The position numbers and the translations under genes are program-made. DNA of 20,461 nucleotides from Treponema sp. (GTDB lineage Bacteria; Spirochaetota; Spirochaetia; Treponematales; Breznakiellaceae): assembly GCA_031283505.1 (NCBI GenBank), contig JAITBO010000411.1, forward strand, positions 1 through 20,461, in the 5' to 3' direction. Positions 742-20,461 of the stretch are shown in pieces (position 1 is the first letter of the stretch; every line of letters begins with the position of its first letter). Below the pieces are notes generated by a model. That model saw only the letters and a program-made list of their open reading frames with translations, had not been told where the DNA came from and made no database searches.

Positions 742-755
742 AAAAATAAATGAAT

Positions 756-761
756 AGGAGG
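756..761 (+). promoter_or_regulatory. Ribosome binding site fixing the start of GH18 gene 1
   Basis: AGGAGG lies 6 bases before the ATG at 768. The earlier in-frame ATG at 750 precedes this site, so it is not the start. The choice matters because it leaves the protein with no room for a signal peptide; the frame is closed by a stop at 741. Confidence 0.85.
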
Positions 762-767
762 AAAATT

Positions 768-1997
768 ATGCAAAAGATTTCAAACAATGCTGCGGACGAT
801 GGATTCATCGGGGATAAGATTATTACAGGGACCAATCAGAAAGTAAAGGCGGTTGTTTATATCGAAGTAAACAACTACAACCCTCTGAATGCCGCTTCCT
901 ATATTCTGGAGGATGGTACATTGTTATTTGACTATGCGGTCATTTTCGCGGCAAACATCAGAAACAGAAACTGCGGCGCTGATCCTAAGTCAAACGACGG
1001 ATGTACTGAAAACGGGCCTCATGTCCACCTCAATGAAAATGTACGGCACCTTCTTGAAAACCGCGAAAAGTACATTAAGCCCTTGCAAGATAAAGGCATC
1101 AAAGTACTGCTTGGGCTTCTGGGCGACCACGATGGTATCAGTTTCGGTACTATGAACGATACCGAAAGGGCGGCCTTTATTGCCGATGTCAAAAAGGACG
1201 TAGAAACTTACGGCCTTGATGGAGTCAACTTTGATGATGAATGGGGCAGCAAGGAAGATACGGATAACTGGGGGGAGAATCAAGAGACTATTTCACCTAA
1301 CAGCATCTGGACTTATCCAGTCACTGAATTGCACTGGCCTTTTAGAGCTACAGTTTATCGGAATCCCAATATGGGAATCGTAGCCGGTAATGGTCAGTTT
1401 GATGCTCCATCTGAGGATGACCAAAACAGGATGTGGCTGGAAAGTGGAGAAAACTATTACAAGACCATCAAAGCTGCCCGGGAAGCCCTGGGACCGGACA
1501 AGATCGTAAGTCTCTACGAATATAATGCAGGACGTTATATAACCCCGGAAGGGCAGACAAACGGTGAAGCTACGGTTGACCTGCTGAGGGGCGCTCTTGA
1601 TTTTGCGTTACAGCCTTGGTATAGCCAGTACATTACTGATAGCGCTAATGGTCTAGATCGGAGCATATATTCTCCTTTTGGTATAGATTTGGGTGGTGAA
1701 GCCTATTATCAGAACGGTACTCCGCTCCCTCCGATTGTGAGTAACGATGGTGACGAACATGGCCCTAATACCATTTATGATTATTCGACTCGTTTTAAAA
1801 ACGCGGCGGCAGAAGGTAAGGCTTACAATATATTGTACCTTTACTCACTGAGACCAGCTTCTGAACTCTTGAAACACGATCCAGATGAAGCGGTGCCGAG
1901 CGTAACCAGGGAAGCGTACATTTCCATGATGACCGGAATTCTCTTTGGTCAACAATGTGTTCTGGCAGATCACGGCGATTATCGTAAAGACTGGTAA
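768..1997 (+). CDS. GH18 endo-beta-N-acetylglucosaminidase (EndoH/EndoF type), without export signal
   Basis: A 409-residue protein whose whole length resembles EndoH and the EndoF-like enzymes, which cut between the two GlcNAc residues of N-glycan cores. Visible family blocks are VYIEVNNYNPLNAASY (first strand), FAANIRNRN, IKPLQDKGIKVLLGLLGDHD, the catalytic segment DGVNFDDEW (D151 to E158), IVSLYEYN and QPWYSQY. D156 and E158, equivalent to the catalytic D130/E132 of EndoH, are kept; the fourth motif position is Asn, a position that also varies in EndoF enzymes. The protein starts MQKISNNAADDGFIGDK with no hydrophobic stretch, whereas the next paralogue has a lipoprotein leader before the same IIxGT-KVKxxVYIEVN segment. 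It is therefore either cytoplasmic or a copy that lost its export signal. The C-terminus is DYRKDW. A strong terminator follows. Confidence 0.88.
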   Translation: MQKISNNAADDGFIGDKIITGTNQKVKAVVYIEVNNYNPLNAASYILEDGTLLFDYAVIFAANIRNRNCGADPKSNDGCTENGPHVHLNENVRHLLENREKYIKPLQDKGIKVLLGLLGDHDGISFGTMNDTERAAFIADVKKDVETYGLDGVNFDDEWGSKEDTDNWGENQETISPNSIWTYPVTELHWPFRATVYRNPNMGIVAGNGQFDAPSEDDQNRMWLESGENYYKTIKAAREALGPDKIVSLYEYNAGRYITPEGQTNGEATVDLLRGALDFALQPWYSQYITDSANGLDRSIYSPFGIDLGGEAYYQNGTPLPPIVSNDGDEHGPNTIYDYSTRFKNAAAEGKAYNILYLYSLRPASELLKHDPDEAVPSVTREAYISMMTGILFGQQCVLADHGDYRKDW

Positions 1998-2135: not shown

Positions 2136-3479
2136 ATGCAAAAGAAGCGAAAAAGCAATGTATGGAAATTGCTTTTGGGCATCATGGCAACGGTCATGAT
2201 CGTATTTATGACAACCGGCTGTCCGACTGGTTCGGAAGAACCTGAGGAGGAGCCAGAATTCATTCCTGAAATCATCCCTGATAAGGTCATTGCCGGAACT
2301 ACTCACAAGGTAAAAACCGCAGTGTACATCGAAGTGAATGACCACAACCCCTTGAACGCCGGTAACTACACCCTTGCTGACGGCACATTGCTTTTTGACT
2401 ACGTGATCCTTTTTGCAGCAAACATCAGAAACAGAAACTGCGCTCTTGAAACAAACGAAAAACATGGTTGTACTGAGCAGGGGCCTCATGTCCATTTCAA
2501 TGATAATGTGCGGTACATCCTGGAGAATCGGCAAAAGTACATCGTACCTCTGCAGAAAAAAGGTATCAAAGTACTGCTCGGCCTTTTGGGAGATCATGAC
2601 GGTATCGGTTTTGGTACTATGAATGCTGCCGACCGGGCGACCTTTATTGCCGATGTCAAGAAAGATGTGGAATATTACAAGCTGGACGGGGTTGACTTCG
2701 ACGACGAATGGGCCAGCAAGGAAGACTGGGACGGCTGGACCAACGAGTATGCGGTCGTTTCACCAAACAGCATCTGGACCTATCCAACAAGCAGGTGGGG
2801 TTGGCCTTTCAGTGGGAATGTCTACCGCGATCCAACCAAGGGAATTGAACCGGGTAATGGTATTCTTAATCCCGCTCCTTCAGAGGATCAAATGGATGCC
2901 ATGTGGAAAGCAAGCGGGGTATTGTACCACCCGCTCATCACTGAAACCCGGTCGGCGTTGGGACCGAACAAGATCATAAGCCTCTATGAATACAACAGCG
3001 GTCGCTATATGACCCCCGGTGGGCAGCCAAACGGCGGACTTGGGGTCGCTCCGCTCAACAGCGCCATAAGTTTTGCGATGCAACCCTGGTATAGTCAATA
3101 CATTGAGAACAGCGCAAATGGCTTTGACCGGAGCAAGTATTCGCCCTTTGGTATGGATTTGGGCGGTAATGCCTATTATCAGGGCGGACCGCCGCTCCCG
3201 CCGATTGTCGTAAACGAAGACGATCATGCAACCAATACCATCTATGATTTTTCGACTCGTTTCAAAAAGGCAGCGACAGATGCCGCCCCTTACGGTATGC
3301 TGTACTTCTTCAATCTGAAACCTGCTTCAGAACTTCTGAAACACGATTCCAATGAGGCGGAGGCAAGTGTAACCAAGCAGGCGTACATTTCGATGATGAC
3401 CAATATTGTATTTGGCCAGAACTGTGTGCTTACCACCGAGGGCGAGGCCGGTGACTATCGTAAAGACTGGGGCAATTAA
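2136..3479 (+). CDS. GH18 endo-beta-N-acetylglucosaminidase, lipoprotein, catalytically complete
   Basis: A 447-residue secreted EndoH/EndoF-type enzyme predicted to release N-glycans by cutting the chitobiose core. Residues 1-29 form a lipoprotein leader: basic start MQKKRK, hydrophobic core to about 25, then TTGC with Cys29 as the lipidation site, followed by a Glu-rich tether (about 34-42). The GH18 barrel begins near VYIEVNDHNPLNAGNY. The full DxxDxDxE motif is present as DGVDFDDE (D184, D187, D189, E191), with D189 and E191 the expected catalytic pair. Other blocks shared with EndoH are FAANI, KGIKVLLGLLGDHDG, IISLYEYN and QPWYSQY. It starts with AGGAGG seven bases before ATG. It is clearly a duplicate of the preceding gene. 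The protein ends DYRKDWGN, a tail related to those of both paralogues. High-mannose specificity would be a guess. Confidence 0.93.
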   Translation: MQKKRKSNVWKLLLGIMATVMIVFMTTGCPTGSEEPEEEPEFIPEIIPDKVIAGTTHKVKTAVYIEVNDHNPLNAGNYTLADGTLLFDYVILFAANIRNRNCALETNEKHGCTEQGPHVHFNDNVRYILENRQKYIVPLQKKGIKVLLGLLGDHDGIGFGTMNAADRATFIADVKKDVEYYKLDGVDFDDEWASKEDWDGWTNEYAVVSPNSIWTYPTSRWGWPFSGNVYRDPTKGIEPGNGILNPAPSEDQMDAMWKASGVLYHPLITETRSALGPNKIISLYEYNSGRYMTPGGQPNGGLGVAPLNSAISFAMQPWYSQYIENSANGFDRSKYSPFGMDLGGNAYYQGGPPLPPIVVNEDDHATNTIYDFSTRFKKAATDAAPYGMLYFFNLKPASELLKHDSNEAEASVTKQAYISMMTNIVFGQNCVLTTEGEAGDYRKDWGN

Positions 3480-3552: not shown

Positions 3553-3574
3553 CCATGCGTCATTTGACGCATGG
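3553..3574. promoter_or_regulatory. Perfect palindrome in front of GH18 gene 3 (possible operator)
   Basis: Arms CCATGCGTCA and TGACGCATGG are perfect 10-bp inverted repeats separated by TT. It lies 26 bp before the chosen start at 3601 and covers an in-frame upstream ATG at 3571. Size and symmetry suit a dimeric repressor site, and the GntR-LacI regulator gene lies downstream, but no second copy was seen in the window. In RNA it would form a very tight hairpin. Confidence 0.45.
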
Positions 3575-3600
3575 TATTAATTCCTTTGGATGATAGAACA

Positions 3601-4908
3601 ATGAACAAGAGCATGAAAATCACGTTTGGAATACTGGCAATGTTTTTTATACTTGCCTGCCAGCAGCCGGGAAATGCGGGAAGCCCATTTGAAATTAACC
3701 CCTCAATTCCGCTCAAAAAGCTGGTAACCACTTCATCCCGAGTAGAAACCATTTGTTATGTGAACGCAGAAGAAGACAATCCCCTTAACGCAAAAGATTA
3801 TATTTTGGCCGGAAATGCCAATAACCCTGATACACAGTTTTTTAACTATGTGGTCCTTGGCTATTCATATATGAACAAAGACAACCGGGGGTATACCCAC
3901 ATGGTAATGACCCCTGCTCTGCAATCCATGCTTAATAATAGTATCACGTATATTAAACCGTTGCGCCTAAAAGGTATACAGGTACTTATCGAAGTGCGTA
4001 GCGGTAATTTTCGGGATGATGAAGATGGTATCGGTACCGGTTTTGGAACTATGGACGTAGCGGCCATCGACGAATTTATAAAAGAACTTAAAATGATAAT
4101 AAATAAATACGGTATTGACGGCTTTGATTTCAATGATATAGGGGGCGGGAAGAATTCCTATCCTCCAAACACCCGCCACCTAAAGCAGTTCCAAAAGGAT
4201 GAGTCTTTGTATCCTGAAAGTATGTTCAAGAAAAAAGACGGCCAGGGCAATATAACCGGCGAATATCTGGAGGACGATGAAATCGAAAGGATTCTCTGGA
4301 TCGAAGGGGGCAGCAACTTTTCAAACCTGATCCAAAGATCCAACGAGTCCCTCAAAGAAACCTACACCTCGGTCTGGAAAAACGGCAGTTTCGCGACTGA
4401 CGTTCCCAGTCACGTTGAACGGTCTATACTGGTGCGGAGCAGGAATCACGGTAATCACTTGCTCTCCCAATTACGCATGGCCTATATGCCCGACGCCTAT
4501 TCAGGCGCGGACCCTAAAACTACGGGAAACTTGAAATACATTGTTTATGACACCCCTTACAACAGCGAAAAACTTCACCCCTCACTCTGGGACGAAGCCC
4601 AGCAAAAAGATGTTGGAGCGATAGAGGCGGATAACAAATATGCCCCTATCGCTGTGGATTTAACGGATCGAAAAGACGCCGATACCGTGCAGCGTTTGGC
4701 AAAGACCTTTTTACTCAAAGACCTAGATGGATCAATCGCCGATCCGGATAATCAGAACAGATACGGCGCGCTGTATTTTACCAACCTGCCGCCTGTATCG
4801 GAGGCCGATTCCGCCGCCTATATGACTTATTTTTCACGGGAACTCTTTGGACGGGTAGTACGGCTTTCCGGCGCCGCCGGCGCGGGGAATTACAAAAAAA
4901 CCTGGTGA
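3601..4908 (+). CDS. GH18-like lipoprotein with substituted catalytic residues (probable glycan-binding pseudoenzyme)
   Basis: A 435-residue lipoprotein: short leader MNKSMKITFGILAMFFILAC with Cys20 as lipidation site. The ATG at 3601 is chosen because it gives this clean leader and has GGATG upstream; the in-frame ATG at 3571 would add ten residues and lies inside a palindrome. The body follows the EndoH/EndoF fold pattern (ICYVNAEEDNPLNAKDY, YIKPLRLKGIQVLIEV, IDEFIKELK). At the active site the motif reads DGFDFNDI (D173 to I180), so the catalytic Asp is Asn178 and the catalytic Glu is Ile180. Hydrolysis by the GH18 mechanism is not expected. The frame is intact over its whole length, arguing for selection as a binding protein. 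The tail NYKKTW matches the paralogues' ending. A different enzymatic role cannot be excluded. Confidence 0.85.
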   Translation: MNKSMKITFGILAMFFILACQQPGNAGSPFEINPSIPLKKLVTTSSRVETICYVNAEEDNPLNAKDYILAGNANNPDTQFFNYVVLGYSYMNKDNRGYTHMVMTPALQSMLNNSITYIKPLRLKGIQVLIEVRSGNFRDDEDGIGTGFGTMDVAAIDEFIKELKMIINKYGIDGFDFNDIGGGKNSYPPNTRHLKQFQKDESLYPESMFKKKDGQGNITGEYLEDDEIERILWIEGGSNFSNLIQRSNESLKETYTSVWKNGSFATDVPSHVERSILVRSRNHGNHLLSQLRMAYMPDAYSGADPKTTGNLKYIVYDTPYNSEKLHPSLWDEAQQKDVGAIEADNKYAPIAVDLTDRKDADTVQRLAKTFLLKDLDGSIADPDNQNRYGALYFTNLPPVSEADSAAYMTYFSRELFGRVVRLSGAAGAGNYKKTW

Positions 4909-6277: not shown

Positions 6278-7165
6278 CTATACGTCAATGCCCAAAAGGG
6301 ATTTTGCCAGAAGGCCGATGGCAAACGAAATGGCCGCCACACTCAGGCTGATGATCGCCATTTCCCCAAAGCGCCGCCAGAAGGAAAGTGATTGGGCAAC
6401 GGCAAGGTAGAAATTGAACATGAAGATGATGAGCGCCACGATGATCAGCATGACCACAAAAGCTGTAACATACATAGTGTCGGGCAGCAGCAGATAGGGA
6501 AGGACCATCAGCGCAACAGTGATAAGGTAGGCCATTCCGGTATAGACGCTGGACTTTAGGGCTTTCCGGTTGCCGTCGGCCCGTTCTGCCAGGTAGTTGG
6601 AGGCCGCCATGGACAGGGTGGCGGAAATCCCGGTGATAATGCCGGAGAGAGCCGTAAGGCGGGTACTTGCCAGGGCGAAGGTCAATCCCGCAATCGTCCC
6701 GGTGAGTTCCACCAGGGCGTCGTTCAGGCCCAGCACCATTGCCCCGGCGTAATGCAGCCGCTCCTCGTCTATCATTGCTATAAGACAGTCTTCGTGTTCG
6801 CCCTCCTCCGCGATAATGCCGGGGATTTCGAGTATTTCTTTTGCCAGGGGCCGGTAGTTCTTCACCCCGGCGTATTCGCTCTTTTCCAGAAACTTGATAG
6901 TAAAAGTGGCGCCAAGAACACGGCACAAAAAAATATACCAATAGAGCCAAAGCAGGTTTGGGCCGACCTCCCGGCCTGTATAACTCTTCCACACTTCATA
7001 ATGCCGTCGTTCCGATTTTGCCAAGGTCATCAAAACAGTTTTGTTGTTTTTATCCTTTTGCCGTTTTGCTATACTTGCATATATAAGGCTGTCGTTTATT
7101 TCCGTCTTCTGAAAGGACAGCAGTTTTTTGTATACTCCCGGCGAAAAGTCTGTTTTACTCCGCAT
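6278..7165 (-). CDS. MbfA-like protein: ferritin-like domain fused to VIT1/CCC1 membrane domain
   Basis: A 295-residue predicted inner-membrane iron (or manganese) transporter. Residues about 10-145 form a ferritin/rubrerythrin-like four-helix domain with metal ligands E22, E52xxH55 and E121xxH124; this part also contains a hydrophobic stretch near 71-90. From about 148 comes a VIT1/CCC1-type membrane domain (ALVELTGTIAGLTFALAS, then ITGISATLSMAASNYLAERADG) with further membrane segments at about 207-227, 231-258 and 268-290. In alpha-proteobacteria, MbfA with this layout exports iron and protects against iron-linked oxidative stress. The start is supported by AAGGAG (7177-7172) before the ATG. 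It lies downstream of the EndoQ-UvrD gene on the same strand with 229 bp between them. No Fur-like box was recognised. Confidence 0.88.
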   Translation of the reverse strand: MRSKTDFSPGVYKKLLSFQKTEINDSLIYASIAKRQKDKNNKTVLMTLAKSERRHYEVWKSYTGREVGPNLLWLYWYIFLCRVLGATFTIKFLEKSEYAGVKNYRPLAKEILEIPGIIAEEGEHEDCLIAMIDEERLHYAGAMVLGLNDALVELTGTIAGLTFALASTRLTALSGIITGISATLSMAASNYLAERADGNRKALKSSVYTGMAYLITVALMVLPYLLLPDTMYVTAFVVMLIIVALIIFMFNFYLAVAQSLSFWRRFGEMAIISLSVAAISFAIGLLAKSLLGIDV

Positions 7166-7394: not shown

Positions 7395-10300
7395 TCAGAA
7401 TAACCGGCCCTGAATATCCCCGGACTTTTGTTTTTCTTTCCCGGCCCCCGGCCCGGCTTCCAATCCTGCCAGAGGCACGAGTTCCTCCAGTTTTGTCAGG
7501 AACCGGCTTGGACCGCCCTCCAGCTTCCTCCCTCCCAGCATCCGGGTACGCGCCCAAGACAGGTAGAGTCCCCGCCGGGCCCTGGTCATGGCCACGTAGA
7601 GAAGCCGCTTTTCTTCCGCTATCCGTTCCGGGGTTCCGCCGTCGTAAAGGGTAAAGGGCAGGATGCCTTCTTCAAGACCGGCCGTAAATACATGGTCAAA
7701 CTCCAGCCCCTTGGAAGCGTGGATGGTCATGACCCGCACGGCTTCCCGCTTTACCGGCCCGCCCGGCCCGGCATCCCCGCTGCCGCTGACCGCCAGGGTG
7801 TCCAGGAATTCCCCAATACTTCCGTACATTCCCGCAAGGGTACGGAGCCGTTCGGCATACCCCGCGTCTTCTCCGGCGGCCTTCCGTTTTCCGCGCCCCT
7901 TTGCGGCTCCTTTCAGAACGCCGTCCTGTTCCGCCTCCTGCCACGCCATTCGCACCGCCTCCGCCGGGGTTTGTCCGGAAAACCGGGCAACGGACTCCCT
8001 CAGCCTGTCCAGTACGGTCTTGACCGGCTCCTCCTCCCACCAGGGACGCTCCCCGGTAACCTCGAAGGGAAGCCCGTGATCCTTGAGGGCCTTGGCAACG
8101 GGCCCGGCCAGCGCCGCCGTCCGCAGAAGAACCGCGCATTCCCCAAGGCTCGTAAGCCCCTTTGCAAGCCCTTCCTCCGCCGCATCCGCATCGTGCCCCG
8201 CAACCCGGCTGTCCATGGCGAAAAAGCTCGTCCCCCCTATGAGCCGGGCTATACGCCGGGCTATGCCCTCGGCCTCGGATTTTTCCGTGGGGTATTCCGC
8301 CCGGAAAAGGCTTACCCCTTGTTCCGTCCCCGCAAGACGGGTGTCCGTCAGCCGTCCGGCGGCGTTGATAATGGGGCCGCCGCAGCGGAAACTCCGGGAC
8401 AGGGAAAACCGCGCCGCTCCGGGGTAATCCTCTCCAAAGCGGTCCAAAAAGCGCTTGTCCGCCCCCCGAAACCCGTAGATCGCCTGGTTGGGGTCCCCGA
8501 TGACCCGGATTTCGGCTTCCGTTTCGTTAAGCGCCCCCTCCCCGGCTTCTTCCGCGTTGGGCGCCAGGAGCCGTACCAGAACGTACTGGGCGAAATTCAC
8601 GTCCTGATACTCGTCCACCAGGATGCAACGGTACCTGGCCCGGCACTTTGCAAGAAGAACCGGGTTTCCCGCCAAAAGCCGCGCCGCCCCCGCGACAAGA
8701 TCATCGAAGTCAAGGAGGGCTTCTTCCCTGAGCCGCCTGCGGTAAAGGCCGTAGAGAGCCTCCGCTTTCGGGCCGGCCTTTCCCAGACCGAAGGTTTCCG
8801 CCAGCTCCGGCAGGGACGCGAGGAAGGGGGCCGGCGTTTCCCCGGTCCCGCCCTCATGACCGCCCAGGCGGGGCGCGGTTTCTCCGGGGAGGAGCAGGAA
8901 CCGTTTCCGGCCTTCAATATACTTTCCCAAACCCTGGGGCCGCATTCCCGTTTTTCCCGGCGCTGCCTTGAGGATTTCCTCCAAAATTTCGTCCCGCCCG
9001 GATTCGCTTAAAACGGTGAAGTTCTCAGGAACCCCCATGCCCGGCGGCTGTTCCCTCAACAGGGCGCAGCAAAAGGAATGGAAGGTGGCGGCGGTGACAC
9101 CGGCGGTGATACCGGCGGTATCACCGGCAGTAATACCGGCTGCCGCCTCATCCGAAACCATCCGGACTATACGTTCCCGCAGTTCCCCTGCGGCTTTTAC
9201 CGTAAAGCTGAGAGCCAAAATGGAGGAAGGATCCCGCCCTTCCCGGATGAGCCGGGTTATCCTGGCGGCAAGGGTTGCGGTCTTGCCCGTACCCGGTCCG
9301 GCAATGATGAGGGCGTACCTGCCGCCGTAGGAAACCGCTTCCTCTTGATCCCGGTCAGGGACGAAAGAAGAACCGGCTCCGGGCCGGGCCGTAGATTCCA
9401 CCCCGGCCTGTCCCTCAGGTTCCCGCCCGGCAGTCCGGTTCCGTTTGACGGGGGTTTCCTTCTTGAGCGGTTTCTCCTTCGGGGCAGCCCCTTTTGTCTT
9501 CGGAGGCTGCGGACCAGGCTGTCCAAATCCCGGCCAGCCGTTCTGCCCGTCGAAAAGCCCCGGCTCCCCCGCAAGGATCGCCTTTTCCCCCGGTGGAAAG
9601 GCCCTGATGACCCCATATTCCCCGTCATAACCGGGGGTAACCGACACGTCCCCGGAACGCATCCGGGTGACGGCGGATGCCAGGAGTTCCCCCGAAAGGC
9701 CGGGACACCCCAGCCTGGCGATCTCCCCCGCCTCCATGTCCAGGAGAATGGCGAATTCACTTCCCGCCTTTTCTATCAAAGCGTCGTAAGCGGCGCCCAC
9801 CCTTTTGGAGGCCGCCCCGGTTTCCAATAGTTCCCCCAACAGTTCCGGCAGGGGGATAAGGGACCGGTAGGGCCGCAGGTTCGCCGCTCCCACGGTCTCG
9901 GGCGGACAGGGGGCCGTCTCGTCCACCGGGCGGCAGGCCAGTTCCAGGACCCGACCCATGACCCCTCGGGTCAACTTTTCCCCGCATACAGGACACACGC
10001 CGCCCGCAGCAGCCGCTTCCTGGGGATTCAGGTAAACCCCGCATTTGCGGTGGCCGTCGTAATGGTACTTCCCCTCCTGGGGGAAAAATTCGATGGTTTC
10101 GGCGATCCGGTTCCCATTGGCGGCAGCCGGGGCGTTCACGGACCAGAGGGCTTCGTACAAGGACGGGTAATCCAGGCTCATGTCAAAGACCGTGGCTTCC
10201 CGGCCCAGTTTTTCCGGGGAATGGGCGTCGGAATTGGAGACAATGGCAAAGCGGTCCAGGGCGGCCAGGGCCCAGTTCATAGGAGGGTTGGAAGACAGCC

Positions 10301-10931
10301 CGGTTTCCACTGCGGGAATCCGGGAGGCAAGGTCCCCGTAGCACTCGTCTATGGAATCGAAACCCGATTGCGCGCCCAGGGCCGAAAACCAGGGAGTCCA
10401 GATGTGGGCGGGGATGAGCAGGGATCGTTCATCCGTATCCAGGAGCATTGACAGAAGATCACGGGAATCAATACCCAGAATGGGCCGTCCATCGGAACGG
10501 ATGTTGCCACCCTCCCGTTCCAGCCGGGTCTGAAAAGAAGCGGCGGCCTTAAAATCGGGCAGAATGACAAGATGATGAATCTTTCTGGTGGCATCCCCCT
10601 TTTTATAAATAGTGCTGATTTCTCCGGTAAGCGCGAACCGGGGAAAATCCCCCGGAGACCCGGAAAGCCTCGGCGTGGGGAGCCCGTCGTTCAAGGCAGG
10701 CCCTCCGTCAAATTCCGCCCGCGCTCGTTCCTGTAAGACGTACAGCCCCGGCTCCCGCTCTTCAAGCTGCTCTCTCAGTTCCGCGAGCCACAGGGGATGA
10801 GTGCAGTCCCCGGTCCCCAAAAGATCTATTCCCTTGATCCGGGCCCACCTGTCCAGATAGGCGGGGGTAAGCTTTTTACTCGTAGCCCTGGAAAACCGGG
10901 AGTGAATGTGCAGGTCCGCAATGACACGCAT
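7395..10931 (-). CDS. Endonuclease Q-like PHP nuclease fused to a UvrD/PcrA-type SF1A helicase
   Basis: A 1178-residue fusion. Residues 1 to about 375 match Endonuclease Q: PHP metal motifs DLHIHS (H8, H10), GTGDCTHP, IHHLVILPD, PAHIWTPW and NSDAH (D235, H237), then a zinc-binding segment with C297, C313 and C316 (CPVCGEKLT). EndoQ cuts DNA 5' of deaminated bases such as hypoxanthine and uracil. A Pro/Lys/Gly-rich linker spans about 467-515. From about 520 a complete helicase follows: Walker A GPGTGKT (545-551), DEYQD (773-777), GDPNQAIYGFRG (812-823), MTIHASKGLEFD (about 1068) and LYVAMTRAR (about 1111). The ATG at 10931 is chosen because the PHP domain begins there; a GTG at 11006 would add 25 unrelated residues. 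The gene is clearly more GC-rich than its neighbours. A role in repair of deaminated DNA, cutting then unwinding, is inferred. Confidence 0.9.
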   Translation of the reverse strand: MRVIADLHIHSRFSRATSKKLTPAYLDRWARIKGIDLLGTGDCTHPLWLAELREQLEEREPGLYVLQERARAEFDGGPALNDGLPTPRLSGSPGDFPRFALTGEISTIYKKGDATRKIHHLVILPDFKAAASFQTRLEREGGNIRSDGRPILGIDSRDLLSMLLDTDERSLLIPAHIWTPWFSALGAQSGFDSIDECYGDLASRIPAVETGLSSNPPMNWALAALDRFAIVSNSDAHSPEKLGREATVFDMSLDYPSLYEALWSVNAPAAANGNRIAETIEFFPQEGKYHYDGHRKCGVYLNPQEAAAAGGVCPVCGEKLTRGVMGRVLELACRPVDETAPCPPETVGAANLRPYRSLIPLPELLGELLETGAASKRVGAAYDALIEKAGSEFAILLDMEAGEIARLGCPGLSGELLASAVTRMRSGDVSVTPGYDGEYGVIRAFPPGEKAILAGEPGLFDGQNGWPGFGQPGPQPPKTKGAAPKEKPLKKETPVKRNRTAGREPEGQAGVESTARPGAGSSFVPDRDQEEAVSYGGRYALIIAGPGTGKTATLAARITRLIREGRDPSSILALSFTVKAAGELRERIVRMVSDEAAAGITAGDTAGITAGVTAATFHSFCCALLREQPPGMGVPENFTVLSESGRDEILEEILKAAPGKTGMRPQGLGKYIEGRKRFLLLPGETAPRLGGHEGGTGETPAPFLASLPELAETFGLGKAGPKAEALYGLYRRRLREEALLDFDDLVAGAARLLAGNPVLLAKCRARYRCILVDEYQDVNFAQYVLVRLLAPNAEEAGEGALNETEAEIRVIGDPNQAIYGFRGADKRFLDRFGEDYPGAARFSLSRSFRCGGPIINAAGRLTDTRLAGTEQGVSLFRAEYPTEKSEAEGIARRIARLIGGTSFFAMDSRVAGHDADAAEEGLAKGLTSLGECAVLLRTAALAGPVAKALKDHGLPFEVTGERPWWEEEPVKTVLDRLRESVARFSGQTPAEAVRMAWQEAEQDGVLKGAAKGRGKRKAAGEDAGYAERLRTLAGMYGSIGEFLDTLAVSGSGDAGPGGPVKREAVRVMTIHASKGLEFDHVFTAGLEEGILPFTLYDGGTPERIAEEKRLLYVAMTRARRGLYLSWARTRMLGGRKLEGGPSRFLTKLEELVPLAGLEAGPGAGKEKQKSGDIQGRLF
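9093..9140 (-). repeat. 12-bp in-frame minisatellite in the helicase domain
   Basis: Four tandem 12-bp units (variants of GGTGATACCGGC) start at 9093, 9105, 9117 and 9129. On the coding strand they give GITAGDTAGITAG, a low-complexity insert between helicase motifs Ia and Ib. Being a multiple of three, copy changes would alter loop length without a frameshift. Confidence 0.75.
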
Positions 10932-11182
10932 GGCTTTATTATAGAAGCCGCCGGATTTTTCGGCAATGCGGCGTTTACGGACAATCAGGAAAGGGGATAT
11001 TATCACTGATTTTCAACACAGGAATAAGGCCAGGATGGACCGGAATAAAATTTCGTCATACAATAATGGCGCAGGCAAACTCCGCCAGTTTTTTTATCGG
11101 GCTTTCCCTATTCCCGGGTAAGCTCCAAGTTCTGGATCAAATGGCGAAACAGTAGTATTTTATATTAAACAAGGAGAATTAT

Positions 11183-11635
11183 ATGGATAATGACGTATTG
11201 ATTGAATGGGATGCCCGATATTCGATGAACATTCAGTTTATAGACGATCAGCATAAAGAGCTTATTAACCTGACGAACGCTTTGTATAAGGGATGCCTTG
11301 TAGGGGACGAGACAGCTCGGACTTATTTTATGGAGACCATCCGTGGAACGGTTGACTATGTGAAGTATCATTTTTCGGCGGAGGAGAAGATGCTGGAGAA
11401 TGTTAAATATCCCGATTTTGCCAATCATAAAAAGGAACACGAAAGTTTCGTAAAAAAAATCCTGGAGGATGTTGAGAAATTTCAGGAGGGCAAGAAATTC
11501 GTACCTAATCAATTTGTCCGTTATTTGAAGGATTGGATACTTACCCACATCGCTATACAGGACAAAAAATACTCCGACTTTATTTTCGACCTCAAGAAAA
11601 AAGGGCTTCTCAATGCCCGCCTGTTCACTAATTAG
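11183..11635 (+). CDS. Bacteriohemerythrin (O2-binding diiron protein)
   Basis: A 150-residue single-domain hemerythrin. All diiron ligands are in place in order: an N-terminal His before the first helix is absent as usual for the core shown, then HKELINL (HxxxE), HFSAEEKML (HxxxE), HKKEH (HxxxH) and HIAIQDKKY (HxxxxD). It opens with the usual WDxxYSMNIQFIDDQHKEL block. Such proteins bind or sense oxygen, or carry it in microaerophiles and anaerobes; in gut spirochaetes oxygen scavenging is a reasonable guess. There is no membrane or signalling domain. AAGGAG (11171-11176) lies 6 bases before the ATG. The gene is divergent from the EndoQ-UvrD gene. Its last three codons, including the stop, form part of a duplicated 10-bp target of the element inserted next to it. 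Confidence 0.93.
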   Translation: MDNDVLIEWDARYSMNIQFIDDQHKELINLTNALYKGCLVGDETARTYFMETIRGTVDYVKYHFSAEEKMLENVKYPDFANHKKEHESFVKKILEDVEKFQEGKKFVPNQFVRYLKDWILTHIAIQDKKYSDFIFDLKKKGLLNARLFTN

Positions 11636-19831: not shown

Positions 19832-20461
19832 TCACAATGCAGCTATATCTTCGACGGAAAGCCCGGTAGCCTCTGCAATTTGGTCAATGGTTATTCCGAG
19901 TTTTTTCATTTGAGCGGCGACTTTCTCTATGCCTTCCCGCCTACCCCTTTGTATGCCTTCCCGCCTACCCCTTTGTATGCCTTCCCTCCTGGCCTGGTTG
20001 AGTCCGCTGGTCCAGTCTGACATCGCCATTTCCCTCATTTGATATACACGCAACGCCTCTTTGTCGCTTGATACATACTCCATCTTTTCCTCCGCTCTCT
20101 GTATCCCCACGTCCATCCGGATTACCTCCTCCACAAGGCTTTTCGGACTGTCCTGGTCAAACCACGTCAGCCACCGCTGCAACGCATCGTTCCGTATGTC
20201 CCTTTCCCCTATCCGCCGGAACTTCACCATGTCTATAAAATGGATTTCCAGCGCTTCCGTCAATACAACTTCCCGGCGCCTGTCTTCCCGTATATGAAAA
20301 CTTGTATGAAACTCTGGTATCTGCGGCAGAAATTCGTAGTTCACTATGTTTATCGCTATCACATCCGGTGTTTCCCGGTAATCCTGCCCCGCTTCCATAC
20401 TCCGCGAAAACTCACGGCTCCAGTAAAACAGACTCCGCCGGTCCATGTTCCCCAGATTGCG
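19832..20461 (-). CDS. Rpn-family PD-(D/E)XK nuclease/transposase-like protein, C-terminal part
   Basis: The frame runs off the right edge, so the N-terminus with the catalytic PD-(D/E)XK residues is outside the window; the ATG at 20446 is probably internal. The 209 visible residues match the PDDEXK_2 (Rpn) family: GNMDRRSLFYWSREFS, TPDVIAINIVNYEF, FHTSFHIREDRRREVVLTEALEIHFIDMVKF, and a helical tail with repeated GIQRGRRE units. It ends in a short helical motif, MKKLGITIDQIAEATGLSVEDIAAL, common as the tail of these proteins. Rpn proteins of E. coli promote RecA-independent recombination and often lie in mobile or variable regions. The repeat-rich region before it fits that picture. Confidence 0.85.
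   Translation of the reverse strand, partial: RNLGNMDRRSLFYWSREFSRSMEAGQDYRETPDVIAINIVNYEFLPQIPEFHTSFHIREDRRREVVLTEALEIHFIDMVKFRRIGERDIRNDALQRWLTWFDQDSPKSLVEEVIRMDVGIQRAEEKMEYVSSDKEALRVYQMREMAMSDWTSGLNQARREGIQRGRREGIQRGRREGIEKVAAQMKKLGITIDQIAEATGLSVEDIAAL
19929..19976 (-). repeat. 24-bp tandem repeat in the Rpn-family gene
   Basis: Two exact 24-bp units (19929-19952, 19953-19976), followed by a partial third from 19977, encode repeated GIQRGRRE octapeptides near the C-terminus. The length keeps frame, so copy number may vary between strains. Confidence 0.8.

What the first reader, a model, noticed from the sequence alone, without database searches (positions are those of the whole stretch)
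7395..10931. Endonuclease Q fused to a UvrD-type helicase in one polypeptide
The N-terminus carries EndoQ-like PHP motifs (DLHIHS, GTGDCTHP, NSDAH) and the zinc segment CPVCGEKLT; the C-terminus has a full set of SF1A helicase motifs. EndoQ is best known as a stand-alone archaeal enzyme that nicks 5' of deaminated bases. A covalent link to a helicase suggests a self-contained nick-and-unwind route for deaminated DNA, useful under oxidative or nitrosative stress in a gut. The fusion may already exist in sequence databases; its biochemistry is, as far as I know, not established.
Basis: partly seen in the sequence, partly recalled or inferred. Interest (0 to 1): 0.8.

Follow-up and report, generated by a model that had tools for sequence, protein, structure and literature searches.

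The report
DNA-damage nicking enzyme fused to helicase
One bacterial protein joins an enzyme that cuts DNA next to chemically damaged (deaminated) letters to a motor that peels DNA strands apart, and it ends in a tag that may dock it on the replication clamp; this looks like a compact repair machine that is common in bacteria but for which I found no published test.

The parts
7395..10931 (-). EndoQ-UvrD fusion gene, 1178 aa, including stop codon
   Evidence: single open frame; homologues over the full length
9594..10931 (-). EndoQ module, aa 1-446 (PHP catalytic domain, zinc segment, C-terminal part)
10620..10622 (-). E104, equivalent of PfuEndoQ E76
   Evidence: alignment, numbering; invariant 85 of 85
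10575..10577 (-). H119, equivalent of PfuEndoQ H84
10404..10406 (-). H176, equivalent of PfuEndoQ H139
9981..10052 (-). Zinc segment H294-x2-C297 ... C313-x2-C316 (first Cys of the archaeal segment is His here)
   Evidence: all four invariant 85 of 85
9375..9566 (-). Disordered linker aa 456-519; aa 456-460 (EPGLF) is at the place where many fusions of other phyla have a second QxxLF-like motif
   Evidence: pLDDT under 50 for 456-519; loose motif Q-x-x-[LF]-[FLI] or Q[LM]SFF in aa 445-470 in 24 of 41 non-spirochaete rows and 3 of 44 spirochaete rows
7458..9374 (-). UvrD/PcrA-type SF1A helicase, aa 520-1158
7728..8045 (-). Short 2B-equivalent region, about aa 963-1068
   Evidence: 106 residues between motif IVc and V; median 113 in 62 fusions, 167 in 11 other UvrD-type helicases
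7398..7412 (-). C-terminal beta-clamp-binding-type motif QGRLF (aa 1174-1178), at the end of a disordered tail
   Evidence: QxxLF within the last 14 aa in 143 of 170 distinct fusions, window included; pLDDT under 50 at 1157-1172 and 1175-1178

Best explanation
A clamp-tethered excision-repair enzyme for deaminated bases. The EndoQ module flips out uracil, hypoxanthine or an abasic site and cuts 5' of it, leaving a 3'-OH and a 5'-phosphate strand that carries the lesion. The attached UvrD-type motor then loads at that nick on the undamaged strand, moves 3' to 5' along it, and peels away the lesion-bearing strand, while the C-terminal QxxLF peptide holds the enzyme on the beta sliding clamp, where polymerase refills and ligase seals. 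Shown here: one intact polypeptide, both folds, conserved catalytic residues of both modules, wide co-inheritance, a conserved clamp-type motif. Inferred: lesion specificity, unwinding, loading strand, clamp binding, order of steps.
For: EndoQ fold and essential residues (essentiality of E76, H84, H139 from passages of PMC8307549). Helicase fold and invariant K550, T551, D773, E774, R849, R1117. 65 of 80 loci fused, 4 with a separate helicase frame downstream, a fifth such case at L145 with a 4 bp gap; L032 and L073 among these may be frameshifted fusions. Split helicases group with fused ones on one side of a 95* branch. EndoQ and helicase distances correlate, r 0.745, 0 of 2000 permutations as high. 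QxxLF at the C-terminus in 143 of 170 fusions against 1.2% in shuffled tails and 0 of 14 other UvrD-family helicases from 8 carrier genomes. In L065 both separate genes end in QxxLF; in L072 the EndoQ ends in the variant QLSFF and the helicase in QLNLFDL. Published: archaeal EndoQ uses a C-terminal PIP box to bind PCNA, with strand displacement proposed after incision (PMC4858679); [quoted passage not shown]
Against: No activity was measured. Stand-alone-size EndoQs are common (56 of 77 matches in one phylum sample, 55 of 97 in another, by frame size), and no helicase lay within the fetched flanks of 20 of 20 such loci of the second sample, so the motor is not needed by every EndoQ. Seven of the 8 stand-alone loci among the 80, and 7 of 7 in the G001-phylum sample, lack the clamp motif. 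The window's motif QGRLF departs from the strong consensus QL[S/D]LF; QMGLF, also off consensus, binds weakly (PMC12309361). A UDG-superfamily gene is nearly always present too, so the pathway looks partly redundant. The zinc segment has His in place of one Cys.
Confidence: 0.55

Rival explanations
1. Clamp-recruited fork or gap helicase with a damage sensor: the main work is done by the helicase at stalled forks or gaps, and the EndoQ module only marks or nicks lesions met there; unwinding of the nicked damaged strand is not the purpose.
For: The terminal clamp-type motif sits on the helicase, also in split loci L065, L072 and L145. Spirochaete fusions keep the terminal motif (113 of 126) but mostly not the one after EndoQ (3 of 44).
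Against: The EndoQ active site is invariant in 85 of 85 fusions. In the spirochaete loci L002 and L009, nested among fusions, EndoQ stands alone with no helicase in the locus; whether that helicase lies elsewhere in their genomes was not checked.
Confidence: 0.2
2. Same enzyme, other lesions: mainly abasic sites, oxidised pyrimidines or other base damage rather than deamination, acting as a small excision-repair system.
For: Published EndoQ substrates include AP sites and oxidised pyrimidines (passages of PMC8307549 and PMC4357722). UDG is present in 37 of 41 EndoQ-carrying genomes, so uracil may not be the limiting lesion.
Against: Residues said to exclude normal bases (H139, G169, S171) map to H176, G211 and S213, all invariant, as expected for U and Hx recognition.
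Confidence: 0.15
3. Anti-phage or anti-plasmid system that attacks DNA with unusual bases, by analogy to nuclease plus UvrD helicase systems such as Gabija.
For: GajB profiles match the helicase. An antiviral role was suggested for bacterial EndoQ (passage of PMC8307549).
Against: GajB matches follow from UvrD homology, and the nuclease part is EndoQ. By Pfam, 10 window ORFs and 10 neighbours at 8 other loci look like ordinary genes (PADLOC was not run on neighbours). Rows cluster by lineage. 0 of 92 matching phage records has a place covering 80% of the protein.
Confidence: 0.08

Closest known systems
Endonuclease Q of Pyrococcus furiosus (PDB 5zb8, 7k30)
   Same: PHP fold, E76/H84/H139/D193 equivalents, zinc segment, whole EndoQ length
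   Different: 30-33% identity in structure alignments; first zinc Cys is His; helicase appended; QxxLF where the archaeal enzyme has a C-terminal PIP box
Bacterial stand-alone EndoQ (Bacillus, Desulfovibrio homologues in PMC4357722, PMC4858679, PMC8438529; passages seen)
   Same: EndoQ homology; a clamp motif in the C-terminal region of bacterial homologues was already noted (PMC4858679)
   Different: The passages seen do not mention a fused helicase; the GGGG-type Bacillota group (16 read here) lacks the motif and branches apart
UvrD / PcrA / Rep
   Same: SF1A motifs and fold
   Different: Scores far below the PcrA, UvrD and Rep cut-offs (262 of 911 bits for PcrA), separate branch, short 2B region, clamp-type motif at the end
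Nucleotide excision repair after incision (UvrC cut, UvrD removes the oligonucleotide, Pol I fills)
   Same: Nick next to damage, then a UvrD-type helicase displaces the damaged strand (PMC5053424 passages; Pol I part from titles in its reference list)
   Different: One nick, one polypeptide, base-specific recognition without UvrA/UvrB
Gabija GajA-GajB
   Same: Nuclease plus UvrD-like helicase
   Different: GajA is not a PHP enzyme (recalled); no GajA seen in the protein or among the scanned neighbours

Membership tests
Endonuclease Q (broad family) | PHP-type fold of EndoQ over its whole length | tested here: met
Endonuclease Q (broad family) | Catalytic residues E76, H84, H139 of PfuEndoQ | tested here: met
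   E104, H119, H176; 85 of 85 fusions
Endonuclease Q (broad family) | Zinc knuckle with four protein ligands (four Cys in the archaeal enzyme, PMC4357722) | tested here: inconclusive
   His-Cys-Cys-Cys instead of four Cys, invariant 85 of 85; metal binding not measured
Endonuclease Q (broad family) | Incision 5' of U, Hx or AP site | not testable with these tools
   needs a nicking assay
NCBIfam TIGR00375 (curated family) | Score above the curated cut-off of 326.6 bits | tested here: not met
   153.5 bits; filed as a relative, not as a member of this curated family
SF1A helicase, UvrD-like | PF00580 and PF13361 above cut-off, conserved motif residues, fold | tested here: met
PcrA / UvrD / Rep equivalogs | Score above NCBIfam cut-offs | tested here: not met
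   262 of 911, 220 of 1144, 218 of 951 bits
SF1A helicase, UvrD-like | ATP-dependent 3' to 5' unwinding | not testable with these tools
   polarity assumed from the family
Beta-clamp client | QxxLF-type motif in a flexible segment | tested here: met
   QGRLF at 1174-1178 after a segment with pLDDT under 50; consensus from passages of PMC12309361
Beta-clamp client | Physical binding to DnaN | not testable with these tools
   needs peptide or protein binding assay
Gabija | GajA partner (OLD-type nuclease, recalled) next to GajB | tested here: not met
   nuclease part is EndoQ; no such Pfam match in this protein or in 10 window ORFs scanned

The most novel reading that the evidence does not exclude
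Bacteria in many phyla possess a third general route for deaminated or abasic DNA beside glycosylase repair and EndoV repair: a beta-clamp-tethered EndoQ-UvrD machine that nicks 5' of the lesion and unwinds the damaged strand itself. Its short 2B region makes the motor less dependent on outside activators, and tethering to the clamp or the neighbouring EndoQ replaces MutL- or UvrB-type recruitment. This would supply the missing step after EndoQ incision.
Probability: 0.4. Interest if true: 0.8.

Novelty: new variant of a known kind. Interest (0 to 1): 0.62.

Why it matters
EndoQ is described in print as archaeal plus a few bacteria (Bacillus, Desulfovibrio), and how its nick is repaired is called elusive (PMC8438529, passages seen). 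Here the fused form alone occurs in 14 named bacterial phyla, and nature has tied the nick to a strand-separating motor and a replication-clamp-type tag. That makes the post-incision step directly testable with one purified protein, and it gives a reason to look for a deamination mutator phenotype in bacteria that also have UDG. Note: the architecture is already visible in databases, so the value lies in the function, the spread and the clamp motif, not in first sight of the fusion.

Tried and rejected
Replacement of UDG or EndoV: UDG superfamily (PF03167) in 37 of 41 genomes reached through EndoQ loci (32 fused, 2 split, 7 stand-alone) and in 195 of 197 genomes of the G001 phylum sample. The 2 without a match, G001 and G046, both carry EndoQ (Fisher p 0.024), which may be genome incompleteness. 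EndoV (PF04493) in 10 of the 41. In the phylum sample 1 of 31 strong EndoQ carriers against 19 of 166 others has a strong EndoV match, p 0.21; dropped before that count were two weak EndoQ matches (G110, which has EndoV, and G186) and two weak EndoV matches (G142, G181). Rejected as a firm claim.

Defence system: rejected as best reading. Conserved neighbourhood: none of 10 neighbour proteins of the window matches any of the 80 loci; the same search found EndoQ in 80 of 80. Missing 2B domain: my first thought was that it is absent; alignment shows it is short, not absent. RNA families: none at gathering score. tRNA: none.

Rows left out and limits: structure alignment A2 has 85 rows (window, 38 of the other 119 listed homologues, 46 of 65 fused loci). 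In the EndoQ tree 12 loci (similar or short) and 3 cut by contig ends (L021, L035, L069) were dropped, only 4 of the listed homologues were used, and the stand-alone copy of L142 was not included. For helicase controls 20 regions were fetched; 6 gave no closed frame that passed my motif filter; 14 were used for the motif count (three pairs of them come from two closely similar genomes), 11 for the 2B size, 10 for the tree. The spirochaete group in the motif counts includes database proteins whose organism was not always named. The 170 include the window itself and at least three proteins marked partial by their source (P0006, P0070, P0073), which count as misses. Fused-size frames were judged by length (800 aa or more); in the G020 sample matches under 121 bits (fragments) were not counted. 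The helicase was checked only for the 23 of the G001 sample: 22 in the same frame (in L108 the EndoQ start lies in another frame), and L099 after an in-frame TAG. L032 and L073 may be frameshifted fusions rather than two-gene forms; they were not mended. Organism names come from record titles, many of them MAGs, and may be wrong. Both trees are 'quick' and unrooted, with weak and long branches, so one fusion event is compatible with them but not proven.
Full report

Are both enzymes intact? Passages of a review (PMC8307549) report that E76, H84 and H139 hold the catalytic metal of PfuEndoQ and that alanine at each abolishes cutting, and that H139, G169 and S171 shape the base pocket. From the alignment with numbering checked, these are E104, H119, H176, G211 and S213 here. 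All are invariant in 85 of 85 fusions, as are H10, D42, H45, D235, H237 and the zinc-segment residues H294, C297, C313 and C316; H8 is kept in 84 of 85. The archaeal zinc segment has Cys where this one has His294; His is a normal zinc ligand, but binding was not measured. In the helicase K550, T551, D773, E774, R849, R937 and R1117 are invariant 85 of 85 and the Q-motif glutamine 84 of 85.

How common is it? A search with the whole protein filled its limit with 7995 candidates, all significant; the 120 listed are the window's own entry and relatives of 795-1283 aa, 51-81% identical, named by sources as UvrD-helicase domain-containing protein, TIGR00375 family protein, superfamily I helicase or DNA helicase. 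So the architecture is already in databases. A scan of genome contigs kept the best 80 loci of at least 584: in 65 the EndoQ frame also holds the helicase, in 4 a separate helicase frame follows on the same strand (L032, L065, L072, L073; in L072 after about 0.9 kb), in 3 the contig ends too soon, and 8 are stand-alone. By record titles the fused rows of the tree fall in 14 named phyla: Spirochaetota, Thermodesulfobacteriota, Myxococcota, Cloacimonadota, Elusimicrobiota, Calditrichota, Bacteroidota, Gemmatimonadota, Chloroflexota, Actinomycetota, Pseudomonadota, Planctomycetota, Binatota and Bacillota. This sample is biased towards relatives of a spirochaete fusion. Samples drawn evenly from five phyla, with matches judged by frame length (800 aa or more against under 600), gave fused-size to alone-size counts of 23:8 (197 genomes; two weak hits not counted), 20:56 (149; one of 610 aa), 3:1 (149; one weak hit not counted), 41:55 (148; one of 671 aa, fragments not counted) and 9:0 (148). 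One locus carries both a fused and a stand-alone copy (L142).

History. In the EndoQ tree (116 rows) the window lies in a starred spirochaete clade of 14 rows, 12 fused and 2 stand-alone. Sixteen Bacillota stand-alone proteins of a GGGG type branch far away. With split rows counted as not fused, the fused label needs 13 changes, at least 12 forced by starred branches, so loss (or gain) of the helicase happened repeatedly. In the helicase tree the 57 fused or split helicases lie on one side of a 95* branch from 10 other UvrD-type helicases of carrier genomes. Pairwise distances of the two halves correlate (57 rows, r 0.745; 45 without spirochaetes, r 0.725; 0 of 2000 permutations as high). This fits joint inheritance. 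It does not prove a single fusion.

The clamp motif. The protein ends ...DIQGRLF. The published clamp-binding consensus is QL[S/D]LF or more generally QxxLF, with positions 1, 4 and 5 most important (PMC12309361, passages). QxxLF occurs in the last 14 residues of 143 of 170 distinct fusions, window included (113 of 126 spirochaete-like, 30 of 44 others), in 1.2% of shuffled tails, in 30 of 13,261 other 14-residue windows of the same proteins, and in 0 of 14 other UvrD-family helicases from carrier genomes. Several of the 27 misses are cut proteins or near variants such as QLKFF or QLRFF. A second, loosely defined motif sits directly after the EndoQ module in 24 of 41 non-spirochaete rows (shuffled 4.9%) but only 3 of 44 spirochaete rows (shuffled 1.1%). 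In split pair L065 both proteins end in the motif, in L072 the EndoQ ends in QLSFF and the helicase in QLNLFDL, the L145 helicase ends in QASLF, and 20 of 20 stand-alone EndoQs read from the G020 phylum, none with a helicase in the fetched flanks, end in QxxLF. On the other side, 0 of 16 GGGG-type proteins have it, and 7 of 8 stand-alone loci among the 80, 7 of 7 from the G001 phylum sample, and the three other Bacillota EndoQ frames read (L145, L146, L147) lack it at the end. A clamp motif in the C-terminal region of bacterial EndoQ homologues was already mentioned in 2016 (PMC4858679, passage), so the motif as such is not new; its conserved place at the end of the fused helicase, often with a second copy after EndoQ, is what I add. 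The window's own QGRLF lacks the favoured L and S/D, so its affinity may be modest.

Mechanism. EndoQ leaves a 3'-OH and a 5'-phosphate at the nick (PMC4357722, passages) 5' of the lesion. [quoted passage not shown] Loaded on the intact strand at this nick it would move so as to displace the lesion-bearing strand. Archaeal workers proposed strand displacement by polymerase, flap cutting and ligation on PCNA after EndoQ (PMC4858679 discussion, read), and a review adds a helicase to that list (PMC8438529). The fusion would supply motor and clamp tag in one chain. The 2B region, which limits monomer activity in Rep and UvrD (recalled, not from a call), is short here: 106 residues between motif IVc and V, median 113 in 62 fusions, against a median of 167 (115 to 185) in 11 controls. 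Everything about activity is inference.

Role in the cell. Carriers keep other UvrD-family helicases as well: 8 of 8 genomes searched have 4 to 10 PF00580 matches, some of them pieces of one frame. A UDG-superfamily gene is present in 37 of 41 EndoQ-carrying genomes, EndoV in 10 of 41. No neighbour of the window gene recurs in the 80 loci, and neighbours at 8 other loci differ from each other; in the window the gene stands between a divergent hemerythrin and a VIT1-type protein. Nothing found points to gut stress or defence.

Literature. Searches for EndoQ with helicase, UvrD, fused, sliding clamp or domain architecture, and for COG1379, TIGR00375 or YqxK listed no paper whose title, abstract start or passages seen describe this fusion. 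The library lacks most subscription journals; the 2021 EndoQ structure paper and a 2020 paper cited by PMC8307549 were asked for and are not held, and the 2017 Bacillus pumilus paper was seen only as a citation. So this absence is limited. Fig. 9A of PMC4357722 draws domain structures of bacterial homologues and could not be viewed.

Noticed in passing
window 750-1997, 2136-3479, 3571-4908 (+): Three tandem ORFs that look alike by eye; the first two have weak GH18 matches just under cut-off (the third was not scanned), perhaps chitinase or endo-N-acetylglucosaminidase-like.
   Followed up: no
window 6278-7165 (-): VIT1-domain protein with an extra N-terminal part (ferritin-like by eye) directly downstream of the fusion gene.
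   Followed up: no
window 10931-11635: Hemerythrin-family protein (11183-11635, +) divergently transcribed from the fusion; a TATAAT-like match ends at 10938, only a few bases before the fusion's ATG, so the message may be nearly leaderless.
   Followed up: no
window 19832-20446 (-): PDDEXK_2 transposase-type match covering only profile positions 81-229 of 229, near the window end.
   Followed up: no
L111-L130 (20 loci of the G020 phylum): 20 of 20 stand-alone EndoQs end in a QxxLF clamp-type motif.
   Followed up: yes
L142: One genome stretch carries both a fused (1216 aa) and a stand-alone (445 aa) EndoQ about 7 kb apart on opposite strands.
   Followed up: no
L002 and L009: Spirochaete EndoQs nested among fusions that have neither a helicase in the locus nor the clamp motif.
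   Followed up: partly
L074 (Moorella stamsii): A UvrB-type gene lies 165 bp upstream of the fusion on the same strand.
   Followed up: no
L099 (G073): An in-frame TAG interrupts the EndoQ part of an otherwise full-length fusion.
   Followed up: no
database proteins: A Pfam accession, PF27218, not among the matches of the scanned Pfam copy, is listed on most relatives, including stand-alone EndoQs; probably a newer EndoQ-part domain.
   Followed up: no
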